Positions 1,479 through 18,891 of a stretch of DNA of 64,000 nucleotides are shown here, piece by piece (the first letter of the stretch is position 1; each line of letters starts with the position of its first letter). Under the pieces are notes generated by a model. The model had not been told where the DNA came from, made no database searches, and saw nothing but the letters and a program-made list of their open reading frames with translations. The position numbers were made by a program, and so were the translations under genes. The DNA is from Thiohalobacter thiocyanaticus (GTDB taxonomy: Bacteria; Pseudomonadota; Gammaproteobacteria; Thiohalobacterales; Thiohalobacteraceae). The DNA lies in contig NZ_AP018052.1 in assembly GCF_002356355.1 (NCBI RefSeq), forward strand, positions 2,046,001-2,110,000, given 5' to 3'.

Positions 1479-2722
1479 ATGAAGAAGACAATCCATTTCA
1501 GAGAAGTAACGAACAATGGAACGGGCTACTGGGGCCTGATCGGCATCCTCGGCCTGATCGTGGCCATCGGCCTGGGTGCCGCCTATTACATGGAACACCA
1601 TGGCCATTATGTCACGGGGATGAACAACCAGATCGTGTGGGGCACCCCGCACGTCTTCGCTGTTTTCCTCATTGTTGCCGCCTCCGGGGCCCTGAATGTC
1701 GCCTCCATCGGTTCCGTATTCGGCAAGGCGCCGTACAAGCCGCTGGCCCCCCTCTCCGGCCTGCTTGCCATCGCCCTGCTTGTCGGTGGTCTGGCCATTC
1801 TGGTGCTCGATCTCGGCCGTCCGGACCGTCTGATCGTCGCCATGACCTATTACAACTTCAAATCGATCTTCGCCTGGAACATCATTCTGTACAACGGCTT
1901 CATCGCCATCGTCGCCGTGTATCTGTGGATGCTGATGGACCCGTCCAAGAAGCAGTACTCATCCACGGTCGGCCTGTTCGCCTTCCTGTGGCGCCTGATC
2001 CTCACCACCGGTACCGGCTCGATCTTCGGTTTCATCGTTGCCCGCCAGGCCTACGACGCAGCCATCATGGCGCCGCTGTTCGTGGTCATGTCCTTCTCCT
2101 TCGGCCTGGCCATCTACCTGCTGGTGCTGATGGCGGCGATGAGGTGGACCGAGCGTCCCCTCGGCGATGCCCTGGTGCGCCGCCTGAAGAACCTGCTCGG
2201 CGTATTCGTCGCCGGCGTGCTGTATTTCGTGCTGGCCTACCACCTCACCAACCTCTATGCCACCGAGCATCACGGCTACGAGCATTTTCTCCTGCTCGGC
2301 GGCGGCATCTACACCCAACTGTTCTGGATCGGCCAGATCCTGATCGGCAGCCTGGTCCCTCTGGCCATGCTGTATCACCCGAGTCTTGGCAAATCACGCG
2401 CCGCCATCGGCTGGGCCTGTGTCCTGATCATCCTCGGGGGCTGGCGCAGATGTACACCATCATCATCGGCGGCCAGGCCTACCCACTGGTCCTGTTCCCC
2501 GGGATGGAGGTCAGCAGCAGTTTCTACGACGGCGTGGTGGCCGAGTACAGCCCCGCCCTGCCCGAGTTCCTGCTTGGCATCGGCGGCTTCGGCATTGCCC
2601 TGATCGCCGTGGCGCTGGCCGTCAAGGTCCTGCCCTTCATGCCGCAGAAGCTGGATGATGCCAGCGCCGATCCGCACCATGCCGGAAGCAGCGCCGACGC
2701 CGCGGCCGGCAAAGCGGCCTGA
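1479..2722 (+). CDS. dsrP: DsrP, NrfD/PsrC-type quinone-interacting membrane subunit, frameshifted
   Basis: A polytopic membrane protein of the NrfD/PsrC family, the quinone-interacting anchor for DsrO and DsrJ. Residues 1 to about 320 read in the start frame with roughly nine hydrophobic segments. At the G-run 2436-2440 the frame is lost. The start frame then gives low-complexity Ser/Pro/Arg sequence until a stop at 2603. The frame entered at 2441 continues as convincing membrane protein (LAQMYTIIIGGQAY onward) to a stop at 2722. One missing G explains this, and a repaired protein would be about 414 residues, normal for the family. Either the reference has a homopolymer error or the gene is broken; the otherwise intact cluster favours an error. 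Confidence 0.88.
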
Positions 2723-4743: not shown

Positions 4744-6390
4744 ATGAGCCAGGAATCCCTCGAACAGACCGAAACCCGGCGCCAGCGGGAGCCGCACGCG
4801 GAGACCTCCGGCGGCGGCATTTCACTGCGCAACCGGGTACTCAACCCCCTGCTCATGCCCATGCTCGGGCTGGGGCTGACCTTCCTGCTCTCGCTCGCTC
4901 ATCTGTGGCTGGCCGAACCCGGCAGCGGCTTTTACATCCTCCAGACACTTCTGGCCGTGCTGGGTCTGGTGCTCGTGATCACAGGCATCATCCTGATCCG
5001 GCATGAACTCCTGCAGCCACTGCAGGAAATCCGCTCCTGGGCGACAATGATGCTGAATAACCAGCTCTCCAGCCGGATCCCGGTCCCGACCCAGGGTCTG
5101 TTCACGGATCTGATGCACGACATCAACCAACTCAGCGATCGTTTCCAGAGCCTGGAACTGGACATGGAAACCCAGGTTCGCAAGCAGACCCGCCACATCA
5201 AGCAGAAGACCCGATCGCTGGAGATCCTCTACGACGTCGCGGCCAGCATCAACAGTTCCCGCGATCTGGATGACCTGCTGACCCGCTTCCTGCACACCCT
5301 CAAGGAGGTGGTACAGGCCCGTGCCGCGACGGTGAGACTGCAGGGCAAGGACAACCAGATGCGTCTGGTCGCCAGTCTGGGACTGAGCGAGGACATCGTG
5401 CGCAAGGAACAGTACCTGCCCTCCGATCGCTGCCTGTGCGGCCAGGCCGCCACCGAGGGGTCGGTGCAGATGCATACCAGCCTGCGCACCTGCAACCGAC
5501 TGGTCGGCAGCGATTTCTTCGACAATCAGGAAATCGAGATGATTGCCGTGCCGCTGCAGTACCGTGGTCGCACCCTGGGGGTGTACAACCTGTTCGTGGA
5601 CAAGAGCAACAAGCTGGACAACGGCGTGGATCGCGAGTTGCTGGTCAGCATCGGCCGTCATCTCGGCATGGCGATCGAGAAGGCCGGCGTTGACGAGGAA
5701 GCCAACCGCCTGTCCATCATCGAGGAGCGCACCCGCATCGCCCACGAACTGCATGACTCGCTGGCACAGACCCTGGCCAGCCTGCGCTTCCAGGTCCGGG
5801 TTCTGGACGAAACCCTGCACCAGGGTGATGAATCCGCCCTGTGGGCCGAACTGGAGCGCATCGAGAACAGCCTGGATGAGGCCTACACCGAATTGCGCGG
5901 ACTGATCGACCATTTCAGCGCGCCCATCGACCGCCGCGGTCTCATACCGGCGGTGGAGAAGGTTATCCAGCGTTTCCGCAATGAATCCGATATTCAGATC
6001 TTCCTGCAGCAGGAATGGGGCAATCGCGAACTGCCCGACGACATGGAAATCCAGGTGCTGCGCATCATTCAGGAGGCGCTGGCCAACGTGCGCAAGCACA
6101 GCCAGGCACACGTGGTGCGCGTACTGATGCGCGGCGATGCGGTCGGCAACTATACCGTGCTGATCGAAGACGACGGGGTCGGCATGGCCAGACCCAACAA
6201 AAGCGGCGGCCCGGGCGAACATGTGGGCCTGTCCATCATGGAGGAGCGCGCCCAGCGGCTCGGTGGACGCATCCGTATCGAATCCGAGCAGGGCGAAGGC
6301 ACGCGCATCCAGGTAATGTTCAAGGCACCGCCCTCGACCCAGGTCAATCTGCAGGAAGTCAACATCCCGGTGGAAAATATCTCCCGATGA
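4744..6390 (+). CDS. NarX-like membrane sensor histidine kinase
   Basis: 548 residues. Two transmembrane segments (about 35-56 and 64-86) are separated by only some eight residues, so there is no sizeable periplasmic sensor, unlike E. coli NarX. A HAMP-like linker and coiled coil (about 87-155) and a GAF-like domain (about 165-310) with Cys230, Cys232 and Cys250 follow. Then comes the HisKA_3 box with HELHDSLAQ (phospho-acceptor probably His337) and a HATPase domain ending near residue 535. The GAF cysteines suggest a cytoplasmic redox or metal signal, which is inference. It overlaps the response regulator by 4 bases (ATGA), so the two form an operon. Confidence 0.9.
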   Translation: MSQESLEQTETRRQREPHAETSGGGISLRNRVLNPLLMPMLGLGLTFLLSLAHLWLAEPGSGFYILQTLLAVLGLVLVITGIILIRHELLQPLQEIRSWATMMLNNQLSSRIPVPTQGLFTDLMHDINQLSDRFQSLELDMETQVRKQTRHIKQKTRSLEILYDVAASINSSRDLDDLLTRFLHTLKEVVQARAATVRLQGKDNQMRLVASLGLSEDIVRKEQYLPSDRCLCGQAATEGSVQMHTSLRTCNRLVGSDFFDNQEIEMIAVPLQYRGRTLGVYNLFVDKSNKLDNGVDRELLVSIGRHLGMAIEKAGVDEEANRLSIIEERTRIAHELHDSLAQTLASLRFQVRVLDETLHQGDESALWAELERIENSLDEAYTELRGLIDHFSAPIDRRGLIPAVEKVIQRFRNESDIQIFLQQEWGNRELPDDMEIQVLRIIQEALANVRKHSQAHVVRVLMRGDAVGNYTVLIEDDGVGMARPNKSGGPGEHVGLSIMEERAQRLGGRIRIESEQGEGTRIQVMFKAPPSTQVNLQEVNIPVENISR

Positions 6391-7070
6391 GTCTGCGCGT
6401 CATACTGATTGATGATCACACCCTGTTCCGGGTCGGCCTGCAGGGCCTGCTCTCCCACCGCGGCATCGAGATCGTTGCCGCAGTGGGCGACGGCAAGGAA
6501 GGCATCCGGCTGGCCGAGGAACTCAAGCCGGATGTCGTGCTGCTGGACATGCGCATGCCTGACATGGATGGACTCGGGGTTCTGCGGCAACTGCGCCAGA
6601 GCGGACTGAAAATGCCCATCGTCATGCTCACGACCAGCAGCAACGAACAGGATCTGGTCGAATCCCTGCGCAATGGTGCCCAGGGTTATCTGATCAAGGA
6701 TATCGAACCTGACGACCTGGTCGTCGCCCTGCGCGAGATCGTTGCCGGCAAGACCGTGGTCGCCCCCGACCTGGCGCCGGTGCTGGCCAAGGTGGTCCAG
6801 GGTGAGAGCATCAGCACCCATGACGCCAGCACCAGCCCCTTCGATGAGCTCACACCGCGCGAGAGCGAGATCCTCGGCCTGCTCGCGGAGGGCCAGAGTA
6901 ACAAGGCGATCGCCCGCAACCTCGGCATCTCCGACGGCACCGTGAAGCTGCATGTCAAGGCGATCCTGCGCAAGCTGGGCGTCCACTCCCGGGTCGAGGC
7001 CGCCGTGATCGCAGTCGAACAGGGCCTACGCTCCACCCGCGAGGATCTCGGCGGGCGCGAGGCCGAGTAA
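6387..7070 (+). CDS. NarL/FixJ-family response regulator
   Basis: 227 residues. The receiver domain (1 to about 125) has the acidic pocket IDDH and phospho-acceptor Asp54 in VVLLDMRMPDMDG, plus the conserved Lys in YLIKDI. A LuxR-type helix-turn-helix (about 155-215) carries LTPRESEILGLLAEG and SDGTVKLHVKAIL. The start ATG lies inside the stop of the kinase gene, so it is translationally coupled and is its obvious partner. Targets cannot be read from the sequence; the neighbouring dsr cluster is one candidate regulon. Confidence 0.92.
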   Translation: MSLRVILIDDHTLFRVGLQGLLSHRGIEIVAAVGDGKEGIRLAEELKPDVVLLDMRMPDMDGLGVLRQLRQSGLKMPIVMLTTSSNEQDLVESLRNGAQGYLIKDIEPDDLVVALREIVAGKTVVAPDLAPVLAKVVQGESISTHDASTSPFDELTPRESEILGLLAEGQSNKAIARNLGISDGTVKLHVKAILRKLGVHSRVEAAVIAVEQGLRSTREDLGGREAE

Positions 7071-7098: not shown

Positions 7099-7569
7099 AT
7101 GAAGAAATACACCGATCTCATCGAGCAAGCCACCTCTCAGATCCAGGAAGTCTTTCCCTGGGACATGGAGGAACTGGAGCAGCACAAGGACAACATTCTG
7201 ACGATCGACACCCGCGAGCCCCATGAATACGAAGCCATGCGCATCGAGGGTTCGCTCAACGTACCGCGCGGAATCCTGGAAACCGCCTGTGAATGGGGCT
7301 TCGACGAAACCGTCCCCGAACTGGTGGAGGCGCGCCACCGCCCGGTGGTCGTGGTGTGCCGCTCGGGCAACCGCAGCGCGCTGGCGGCCGTGACCATGCA
7401 GCAGCTCGGCTACGAGGATGTCTACTCCCTCAAGACCGGTCTGCGCGGCTGGAACGACTACGAACTGCCGCTGGTCGACAGCCAGGGCAACCGGGTCGAC
7501 CCGGATGATGCCGAAGAGTACTTCACGCCCCATCTCAAACCCGAGCAGCTGCCGCCGGAGCAGCGCTGA
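7099..7569 (+). CDS. Rhodanese-domain sulfurtransferase
   Basis: 156 residues, one rhodanese domain. The active-site loop CRSGNR contains the catalytic Cys87, with the CH2A-like IDTREPHEY at about 36-44 and a C-terminal LRGWNDYELPL motif. No signal peptide is seen, so it is predicted cytoplasmic. Such proteins carry persulfide sulfur. Next to dsr genes it could feed or withdraw sulfane sulfur in the same pathway, by inference. It starts 28 bases after the response regulator, in the same direction, with AAGCGGAG before the ATG, so it may be cotranscribed with the two-component genes. Confidence 0.9.
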   Translation: MKKYTDLIEQATSQIQEVFPWDMEELEQHKDNILTIDTREPHEYEAMRIEGSLNVPRGILETACEWGFDETVPELVEARHRPVVVVCRSGNRSALAAVTMQQLGYEDVYSLKTGLRGWNDYELPLVDSQGNRVDPDDAEEYFTPHLKPEQLPPEQR

Positions 7570-12014: not shown

Positions 12015-12356
12015 TCAGTCGTAGTGCTTGTGGTAACTGCGGCGGGTACCCGCGCGCTGCACGATCACACCGGAGATTTGGTGCAGGCCATCGATCTCAA
12101 GGGTGTCGTAACTGGAACGCATGGGCTTGAGGTAATAGCGGTCGTCCTGGACCAGCAACTGGCGGAAGATCAGGTCGTCCCCCTGCAGCCTGGCCAGCAC
12201 GAAGCAGCCGTTCTGTACCACGCCGGAGGGATCGATGATGATGATGCAACCCTTGGCGAACTCGGGTTCCATACTGTCGTCGAGTACCTGCAGTGCAAAC
12301 AGTTCCGCCTCGCCGCAGGAACCGGAATCGATCTGTATGTCGAGGGATTCGCTCAT
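12015..12356 (-). CDS. Stand-alone S24 (LexA/UmuD-fold) protein with predicted dead catalytic dyad
   Basis: 113 residues consisting only of the S24 peptidase fold, without a DNA-binding domain. The serine motif is present (LDDSMEPEF, Ser28), as is the following strand segment GCIIIIDPSG. In LexA and UmuD the catalytic lysine lies exactly 37 residues after the serine, in a V-x-V-K-R-L strand. Here that position is Arg65 (LIFRQL). Autoproteolysis is therefore unlikely; the domain may serve in protein binding. It precedes nothing in the same operon except cysG, 40 bases upstream on the same strand, so it is probably cotranscribed behind cysG. Confidence 0.75.
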   Translation of the reverse strand: MSESLDIQIDSGSCGEAELFALQVLDDSMEPEFAKGCIIIIDPSGVVQNGCFVLARLQGDDLIFRQLLVQDDRYYLKPMRSSYDTLEIDGLHQISGVIVQRAGTRRSYHKHYD

Positions 12357-17618: not shown

Positions 17619-17796
17619 GACGGAACACACGGAATGCACGGACACATTGAAATCTTATGGCATCGTAGGTCGGGTTAGCGCAGCGTAACCCGACACTCAC
17701 GGCGGAAACGTCGGGTTACGCCCTGTCGGGCTAACCCGACCTACGATGCTCATACAATGATAAGCCTGTCCGTGCTTTCCGTGTTTTCCGTGGCCA
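17619..17796. repeat. Nested inverted repeat element (family B around family A)
   Basis: Outer imperfect arms: GACGGAACACACGGAATGC... (from 17619) and, inverted, CCGTGCTTTCCGTGTTTTCC (to about 17796). Inside lies a family A palindrome at 17661-17748, whose ends are a perfect 19-base inverted repeat (CATCGTAGGTCGGGTTAGC and its complement), with internal GTAACCCGAC / GTCGGGTTAC arms. Related copies occur at 23279, 24123, 25649, 34089 and 49210. Confidence 0.85.
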
Positions 17797-17912: not shown

Positions 17913-18704
17913 TCAGCCGTCGATGCAGCCCTGCGGCTCGGGCAGGCCGGCGATGCGCGAGCCCTGGCGCGAGGGTCCCTTGGGAAACAGCTTGTAGAGA
18001 TAGTCCGCGCCGGCCTTTTCCGGACCGACCTCCTCGCGCATATGCCGCATCAGGATCTTGACCATCGGGCTGATGCCGTATTCGAAATAGAACCCGCGCA
18101 GGAAATTGAGGATCTCCCAGTGCTCCGCGGTCAGTTCGATGCCCTCCTTCTGGGCCATGTGGGCCGCAACCCGCTCATTCCAGCGGTGCAGATCGACCAG
18201 GTTGCCCGTGGGGGTGACCTCGTGGCGTTCGCCGTCGAAGTTGAAACTGCCCACGAAGTGGCCGGCCGCCCTGGACTGCTTGACCCTGGGATTGTCGGCG
18301 GCCCGGTTGGCGGCATAGGTACGCCGCTCCAGTTCAGCATCCAGATGCGGCATCGGCACGCCGGCGAGTTTGGAACCCTGCACCAGCACGTCGCCGGGAA
18401 ACAGCGAATCCAGGCGTTCATCACGGGCCAACTCCGCGTGGCCCTCGCGCAGCAGGGCGCGCTTGAGCAGCTTGCGGACCGGCGAAACGTTGTATTCCCC
18501 ATAATAGGCGCGCATCAGGTTGATCACGTCCCAGTGATCCTGGCTCAGGCTCACCCCCATGGCAGCGCCCATGGCTGCAGCGACCTCCGGAGTCCAGTCA
18601 TCGAGGTTGTGCAGCCGTCCGTCCGGCATGAGCGGGACGGTCCTGCCGCCGACCTCCATCACGGCACCAGTGGAAAACTGGACGACATTCGAGGCTTGTG
18701 GCAT
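17913..18704 (-). CDS. Tandem DsrC/TusE-domain protein (two DsrC folds in one chain)
   Basis: 263 residues containing two DsrC-family repeats. Repeat 1 (about 12-125) has DGRLHNLDDWTPEVA, QDHWDVINLMRAYYGEY and LFPGDVLVQGSKLAGVP. Repeat 2 (about 148-263) has GNLVDLHRWNERVA, EHWEILNFLRGFYFEYG and LFPKGPSRQGSRIAGLPEP. Canonical DsrC carries two redox cysteines 11 residues apart on its C-terminal arm. Here repeat 1 has Ser111 and Asp122 in those places and repeat 2 has Ser249 and Cys260. Cys260 is the only cysteine in the chain and is followed by two extra residues (DG). One active cysteine is the TusE pattern, so a sulfur-carrier or regulatory role is plausible. It is a single-gene unit with its own terminator and a palindrome upstream. 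Confidence 0.88.
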   Translation of the reverse strand: MPQASNVVQFSTGAVMEVGGRTVPLMPDGRLHNLDDWTPEVAAAMGAAMGVSLSQDHWDVINLMRAYYGEYNVSPVRKLLKRALLREGHAELARDERLDSLFPGDVLVQGSKLAGVPMPHLDAELERRTYAANRAADNPRVKQSRAAGHFVGSFNFDGERHEVTPTGNLVDLHRWNERVAAHMAQKEGIELTAEHWEILNFLRGFYFEYGISPMVKILMRHMREEVGPEKAGADYLYKLFPKGPSRQGSRIAGLPEPQGCIDG

Positions 18705-18875
18705 GTCAGCACCTTTATCAATCTCTGTGTTGCAGGTTCAGCCTGGCTTGGCGTTGTCAGGCGGGAACATGGGCCGGTCGACTGCCGCGGCAACCATCCC
18801 CCTCATATCCGCTTTAGCGGTCCCCGACAGACGATCTTGAATCCTGCGATGGCAATTCAGGTTAAAATTCATTAT

Positions 18876-18891
18876 GTTAGATATTTCTAAT
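18876..18891. promoter_or_regulatory. Palindromic operator-like site upstream of the tandem-DsrC gene
   Basis: GTTAGATATTTCTAAT: half sites TTAGA and TCTAA around four bases, inside an A/T-rich patch. It lies in the divergent region between the tandem-DsrC gene (start 18704, minus) and the gene at 18972 (plus). A very similar site occurs at 40445. The binding protein is unknown. Confidence 0.45.

What the first reader, a model, noticed from the sequence alone, without database searches (positions are those of the whole stretch)
17913..18704. Two DsrC/TusE domains in one polypeptide, with a single remaining cysteine
The chain has two complete DsrC-fold repeats (about residues 12-125 and 148-263). 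Both retain the G-S-[K/R]-[L/I]-A-G-[V/L]-P arm motif, but three of the four expected redox cysteine positions are Ser111, Asp122 and Ser249. Only Cys260 remains, followed by two extra residues. Known DsrC, TusE and related proteins are single-domain, about 105-115 residues. The pseudo-dimer suggests one half became a docking or regulatory module and the other a one-cysteine sulfur carrier. I know of no characterised member; its presence in a dsr-bearing genome makes it a candidate new sulfur-trafficking component.
Basis: partly seen in the sequence, partly recalled or inferred. Interest (0 to 1): 0.85.

Follow-up and report, generated by a model that had tools for sequence, protein, structure and literature searches.

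The report
Double DsrC sulfur-carrier-like protein
A sulfur-oxidising bacterium makes a protein built from two sulfur-carrier (DsrC-type) domains in one chain, with only the last of four expected cysteines kept; the same design is conserved in about twenty other sulfur oxidisers, so it is a real and apparently undescribed family, but its job has not been tested.

Summary
The ORF at 17913-18704 (-) encodes 263 aa with two complete DsrC-family domains (Pfam E 2.3e-22 and 2.4e-37; modelled halves match solved DsrC-family structures at Z 15.7 and 14.2). The four cysteine positions are Ser111, Asp122, Ser249 and Cys260, as stated. It is not an assembly join: 21 more proteins share the architecture, and all 22 keep Cys260, Ser249, Asp122 and Glu124. 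Both halves are under purifying selection. The family occurs in a subset of gammaproteobacteria (16/369 sampled; 14 of 16 have dsrA, against 103 of 353 others) and stands alone among variable neighbours. N and C halves each form one clade, probably from tandem duplication of a single-domain, two-cysteine DsrC relative; that step has only moderate support. Most likely function (about 0.5): the C-terminal half carries persulfide sulfur on Cys260, like TusE or a natural DsrC C100S, for the reverse Dsr pathway, while the cysteine-free N-terminal half docks it. A persulfide-reading regulator or a Dsr buffer is not excluded. New variant of a known kind.

The parts
17913..18704 (-). Double-DsrC protein, 263 aa, whole ORF with stop codon
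   Evidence: ORF; two PF04358 domains; conserved in 21 other proteins
18330..18665 (-). Half 1: DsrC-fold domain without cysteine (residues 14-125)
   Evidence: PF04358 79.9 bits; VIA Z 15.7 to 1yx3 over residues 12-123; dN/dS 0.13-0.19
18444..18482 (-). Conserved basic helix of half 1 (residues 75-87, PVRKLLKRALLRE); K78, L79 and L80 invariant
   Evidence: per-column conservation; charge of the aligned 15-residue stretch (residues 74-88) +3 to +6 in 21 of 22 members, against -1 to +3 at the matching stretch of half 2
18330..18380 (-). Arm of half 1 (residues 109-125, QGSKLAGVPMPHLDAEL): Ser111 at the CysB position, invariant Asp122 at the CysA position, invariant Glu124
   Evidence: alignment of 22 proteins
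18255..18329 (-). Linker, variable in length and sequence across the family (residues 126-150)
   Evidence: alignment
17916..18254 (-). Half 2: DsrC-fold domain of TusE-like cysteine pattern (residues 151-263)
   Evidence: PF04358 128.1 bits; VIA Z 14.2 to 7syb over residues 156-261; dN/dS 0.02-0.06
17916..17966 (-). Arm of half 2 (residues 247-263, QGSRIAGLPEPQGCIDG): Ser249 and Cys260 invariant; the terminal extension keeps an acidic residue at 262
   Evidence: alignment of 22 proteins
17925..17927 (-). Codon of Cys260, the only cysteine of the window protein (CysA position)
   Evidence: sequence; 22 of 22 members

Best explanation
It is a duplicated, fused DsrC-family protein that serves as an accessory sulfur carrier for the reverse Dsr (sulfur-oxidising) pathway. 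Shown here: two DsrC-fold domains, one invariant cysteine, conserved architecture, purifying selection on both halves, association with dsrAB. Inferred: half 2 takes sulfane sulfur as a persulfide on Cys260, most plausibly from DsrE of DsrEFH, as DsrC and TusE do. Because CysB is Ser249, it cannot form the CysA-CysB disulfide proposed to release sulfite and to be re-reduced through DsrK/DsrMKJOP, so it should carry or store sulfur rather than complete the DsrAB cycle. Half 1, which has no cysteine but keeps the arm motif, a basic helix and an invariant Asp in place of the acceptor cysteine, holds the protein on a partner (DsrEFH, DsrAB or another sulfurtransferase) as a docking module.
For: Cys260 and Ser249 are invariant in 22/22 proteins, and half 2 is under the strongest constraint. 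In A. vinosum DsrC only the penultimate cysteine binds sulfur, the C100S variant still accepts it from DsrEFH, and Cys100 is proposed to be needed for sulfite release (PMC3397948); half 2 has the same residue pattern. E. coli TusE also keeps only the last cysteine. 14 of 16 carriers in the class sample have dsrA, against 103 of 353 others: Fisher p 3.8e-6 by genome, 1.1e-4 by family; the f1-family carriers also have dsrB. All carriers except G188 and G195 encode DsrE. In the window genome no other DsrC paralogue has the CysA-only pattern. Half 1 keeps Asp122, Glu124 and K78-L79-L80 in 22/22.
Against: No biochemical or expression data. No conserved gene neighbourhood outside close relatives, so no partner is indicated. 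103 of 117 dsrA-bearing genomes lack it, so it is dispensable to the pathway. G188 (95% complete) has the fusion, but no dsrA, dsrB, dsrC, dsrE or soxB was found in it, and its contig GC fits that genome. G004 (100% complete, same family and genus as two carriers) has dsrAB but no fusion and no CysA-only protein.
Confidence: 0.5

Rival explanations
1. It is a regulator: a covalent pseudo-dimer of two helix-turn-helix-like DsrC domains that binds DNA through the basic helix of half 1 and reads sulfur supply through persulfidation of Cys260.
For: Half 1 has a conserved basic helix (charge +3 to +6 in 21 of 22) where half 2 has almost none. After DsrC itself the next structural neighbours of half 1 are winged-helix and helix-turn-helix proteins (Fur Z 5.6, sigma region 4, LexA). 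A putative transcription role for DsrC is cited in PMC7787665. The gene stands alone.
Against: Those structural scores are within the range the tool calls common. Both halves are net negative overall in most members. No conserved operator was sought or found.
Confidence: 0.2
2. It is a non-productive DsrC decoy or buffer that occupies DsrAB or DsrEFH and limits flux, Asp122 imitating a loaded cysteine.
For: Both arms keep the GS[KR]xAGxP motif; three of four redox cysteines are replaced; Asp122 is invariant. CysB, proposed for the release step of the DsrAB cycle, is missing in both arms.
Against: Cys260 is invariant, which a pure decoy would not need.
Confidence: 0.15
3. It is the TusE of these organisms, serving tRNA 2-thiouridylation by MnmA rather than sulfur oxidation.
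For: Half 2 has the TusE cysteine pattern and 43% identity to E. coli TusE. It is the only CysA-only protein in the window genome.
Against: It is below the TusE equivalog cut-off (158.1 bits against 191). It is restricted mostly to dsrAB genomes. G004 has neither it nor another CysA-only protein. Several carriers have a second CysA-only protein ending in GCS.
Confidence: 0.12

Closest known systems
DsrC (A. vinosum type; window genome copy at G000 C1:2041389)
   Same: Same fold (half 1 Z 15.7 to 1yx3); arm motif; penultimate-type cysteine retained in half 2; same genomes
   Different: DsrC is a single domain with both Cys100 and Cys111; here two domains and one cysteine; 38% and 42% identity of the halves to the genome's own DsrC
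TusE (E. coli)
   Same: CysA kept, CysB replaced by Ser/Thr; 43% identity to half 2
   Different: Single domain; the fusion scores below the TusE equivalog cut-off and is found mostly in dsrAB genomes
Single-domain DsrC relatives ending in C-[I/V]-D (here 'CID type', L187-L195)
   Same: Arm GPSRQGxRIAGLPxPxxC[IV]D shared with half 2; up to 51% identity to half 2; tandem pairs in G104 and G224
   Different: Separate single-domain genes that keep both cysteines
Cysteine-free DsrC-like protein beside dsrAB (ends ESRRKGGY; L005)
   Same: DsrC family member without redox cysteines, like half 1
   Different: Separate clade in the trees; single domain

Membership tests
DsrC/TusE/DsvC family (PF04358, TIGR03342) | Each half passes the curated score cut-off | tested here: met
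   Pfam 79.9 and 128.1 against 24.9; TIGR03342 74.5 and 128.8 against 53.5
DsrC/TusE/DsvC family (PF04358, TIGR03342) | DsrC fold in both halves | tested here: met
   VIA Z 15.7 for residues 12-123 and 14.2 for 156-261 on a model of pLDDT 79
DsrC/TusE/DsvC family (PF04358, TIGR03342) | Single domain of about 105-115 residues (usual, not part of the score definition) | tested here: not met
   263 aa with two domains, conserved in 22 proteins
DsrC in the strict sense | Two C-terminal cysteines (CysB and CysA) in the arm | tested here: not met
   Ser111/Asp122 and Ser249/Cys260
DsrC in the strict sense | Genome also encodes DsrAB | tested here: met
   dsrA twice and dsrB twice in the window genome
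DsrC in the strict sense | Forms a CysA-CysB disulfide or trisulfide with DsrAB/DsrMKJOP | not testable with these tools
   no CysB is present, so not expected
TusE | CysA kept, CysB replaced by Ala, Ser or Thr | tested here: met
   half 2 Ser249/Cys260, 22 of 22; definition from PMC3397948
TusE | Passes the TusE equivalog model (NF008562, 191 bits) | tested here: not met
   158.1 bits for the whole chain, 109.4 for half 2
TusE | Passes sulfur from TusBCD to MnmA | not testable with these tools
   needs an in vitro transfer assay or complementation

The most novel reading that the evidence does not exclude
A built-in pseudo-dimeric sulfur-supply sensor for the reverse Dsr pathway: one DsrC half evolved into a cysteine-free nucleic-acid- or partner-binding module with Asp122 imitating a charged cysteine, the other reads sulfane sulfur on Cys260, giving sulfur oxidisers a dedicated regulator derived from their own sulfur carrier.
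Probability: 0.15. Interest if true: 0.75.

Novelty: new variant of a known kind. Interest (0 to 1): 0.5.

Why it matters
DsrC-family proteins are the sulfur hand-off hubs of dissimilatory sulfur metabolism, and sulfur oxidisers keep many uncharacterised copies (8 ORFs, 9 domains in this genome). A conserved double-domain member that keeps the sulfur-accepting cysteine but has lost the release cysteine separates the carrying step from the DsrAB redox cycle, and can be tested directly in a cultured organism, T. thiocyanaticus HRh1.

Tried and rejected
Assembly-made fusion: rejected, since 22 proteins in 21 genomes share it. Chance similarity of half 1: rejected. Decaying pseudogene half: rejected, dN/dS 0.13-0.19 for half 1. 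Gene neighbourhood as a guide to function: no conserved neighbour beyond Thiohalobacteraceae and one related genome. Phage or plasmid origin: only ordinary single-domain TusE-like hits and none in viral contigs. G188 as MAG contamination: suspected because its contig is syntenic with G206 (78.6% DNA identity), but its GC (0.424) fits the other G188 contigs sampled (0.415-0.456), so left open. Half 1 modelled alone gave pLDDT 59 and was not used. Fusion of two different paralogous subfamilies rather than duplication: not favoured, not excluded. N+C is one side of a branch at 93/89 in one tree and 81/94 in a reduced tree, but unresolved in a third. Keeping C with the CID singles is not rejected (p-AU 0.33).

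Full report
What is there. The ORF at 17913-18704 on the minus strand encodes 263 aa. Each half alone matches the DsrC family: the first with 79.9 bits (residues 18-120) and the second with 128.1 bits against a Pfam cut-off of 24.9; TIGR03342 agrees. A whole-chain AlphaFold2 model from four sequences has mean pLDDT 78.9 (best of five; the other four were 47-55) and shows the same order of strands and helices twice. By VIA-align, residues 12-123 match A. vinosum DsrC 1yx3 (Z 15.7, 1.6 A) and residues 156-261 match 7syb (Z 14.2, 1.7 A); Foldseek ranks the eight DsrC-family chains first. Half 1 modelled alone had low confidence (59) and carries no weight.

Source. The window is bases 2046001-2110000 of a 3.23 Mb single-contig genome. 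Close relatives include T. thiocyanaticus HRh1 (90% protein identity, L041). Genome size and text (PMC6504805, PMC5552999, PMC7892661) suggest a Thiohalobacter strain such as FOKN1 or COW1; this identification is inference. The window begins inside the dsr operon: dsrJ, dsrO, dsrP and a cobB/dsrN-type gene, about 14 kb from the finding.

Conservation. Searches of 95 relatives and 369 genomes of the class found the double-domain protein in 20 genomes, one with two tandem copies, plus one named MAG, CP070738. In a 349-genome sample of the phylum only the window genome had it. In all 22 proteins Cys260, Ser249, Gln258, Gly259, Asp122, Glu124 and K78-L79-L80 are invariant. The CysB position of half 1 is Ser (14), Thr (6), Ala or Val. 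The residue two after the CysA position is acidic in both halves (Glu124 22/22; residue 262 Asp 20, Glu 2). Between congeners dN/dS is 0.13-0.19 for half 1 and 0.02-0.06 for half 2; dsrC itself gives 0.07.

Origin. In maximum-likelihood trees the N halves form one clade and the C halves one clade, so the architecture probably has a single origin and the halves have been inherited together. N and C are sisters with moderate support in two trees and unresolved in the third. A set of single-domain relatives with both cysteines shares the arm GPSRQGCRIAGLPxPxDC[IV]D; in G104 and G224 two such genes lie in tandem, about 60 bases apart. The best reduced tree places them with both halves (77/71, not starred). 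The likely path is tandem duplication of such a gene, fusion and loss of CysB; this is inference.

Distribution and context. In the class sample 14 of 16 carriers have dsrA, against 103 of 353 non-carriers: Fisher p 3.8e-6 by genome and 1.1e-4 by family. These tests do not fully remove shared ancestry. The two exceptions are G195 (81% complete; a same-genus carrier has dsrAB) and G188 (95% complete, no dsrA, dsrB, dsrC, dsrE or soxB found), which remains unexplained. All other carriers searched encode DsrE. SoxB does not distinguish carriers from non-carriers. The gene stands alone; neighbours are mostly housekeeping genes and differ between families, with partial synteny only among Thiohalobacteraceae and G317. 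The window genome has seven other DsrC-family ORFs; none has CysA without CysB.

Mechanism. Published work on A. vinosum DsrC shows that only the penultimate cysteine binds sulfur, that C100S still accepts it from DsrEFH, and proposes that Cys100 forms the disulfide that releases sulfite (PMC3397948). Half 2 is the natural counterpart of C100S, so it can plausibly accept sulfur but should not complete the DsrAB cycle. Half 1 can do neither; its conserved arm, basic helix and invariant Asp122/Glu124 point to a binding role. Whether the partner is DsrEFH, DsrAB, another sulfurtransferase or DNA cannot be decided from sequence. I give about 0.5 to an accessory carrier with a docking half, 0.2 to a regulator, 0.15 to a decoy or buffer and 0.12 to a TusE substitute.

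Comparison with what is known. It belongs to the DsrC/TusE superfamily by score and fold but fails the definition of DsrC (two cysteines) and the TusE equivalog cut-off. No double-domain DsrC was found in the open-access papers searched; the comparative genomics of Thiohalobacter lists dsrC/tusE genes without mentioning a fusion in the passages read. I therefore rate it a new variant of a known kind.

Noticed in passing
window 1479-2720 (+): dsrP is split between two reading frames near position 2440, whereas the same gene of T. thiocyanaticus HRh1 (G002) reads through in one frame; a sequencing indel or a real frameshift in a core dsr gene.
   Followed up: partly
window 4744-7070 (+): A GAF-containing histidine kinase and a LuxR-type response regulator lie directly after the dsr operon and dsrN-like gene, followed by a rhodanese (7099-7569): candidate sulfur-responsive regulation.
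   Followed up: partly
G000 C1:931272, 1332818, 2034703, 902580, 2188665, 713902 (L003, L004, L005, L006, L008, L009): The genome has six further DsrC-like ORFs besides dsrC and the fusion, in distinct conserved subfamilies with different cysteine patterns (none, CysB only, both).
   Followed up: partly
L192 and L193 (G224, G104): Tandem pairs of single-domain DsrC relatives that keep both cysteines and end in CVDW, directly behind a Rieske ferredoxin gene.
   Followed up: partly
window 12015-12356 (-): Stand-alone S24 peptidase-like domain (113 aa) without a DNA-binding part.
   Followed up: no
window 17660-17749: REP-like inverted repeat (GTAGGTCGGGTTAGC...GCTAACCCGACCTAC) between the finding and pepN.
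   Followed up: no
window 18868-18891: An AT-rich block (TTAGAAATATCTAACATAATGAAT on the minus strand) in the divergent intergenic region upstream of the fusion is partly conserved in two congeners; possible promoter or regulator site.
   Followed up: no
G188 C160 (L076): A 3.9 kb contig carrying the fusion in a MAG with no dsrA, dsrB, dsrC, dsrE or soxB found; either a dsr-less carrier or a mis-binned contig.
   Followed up: partly
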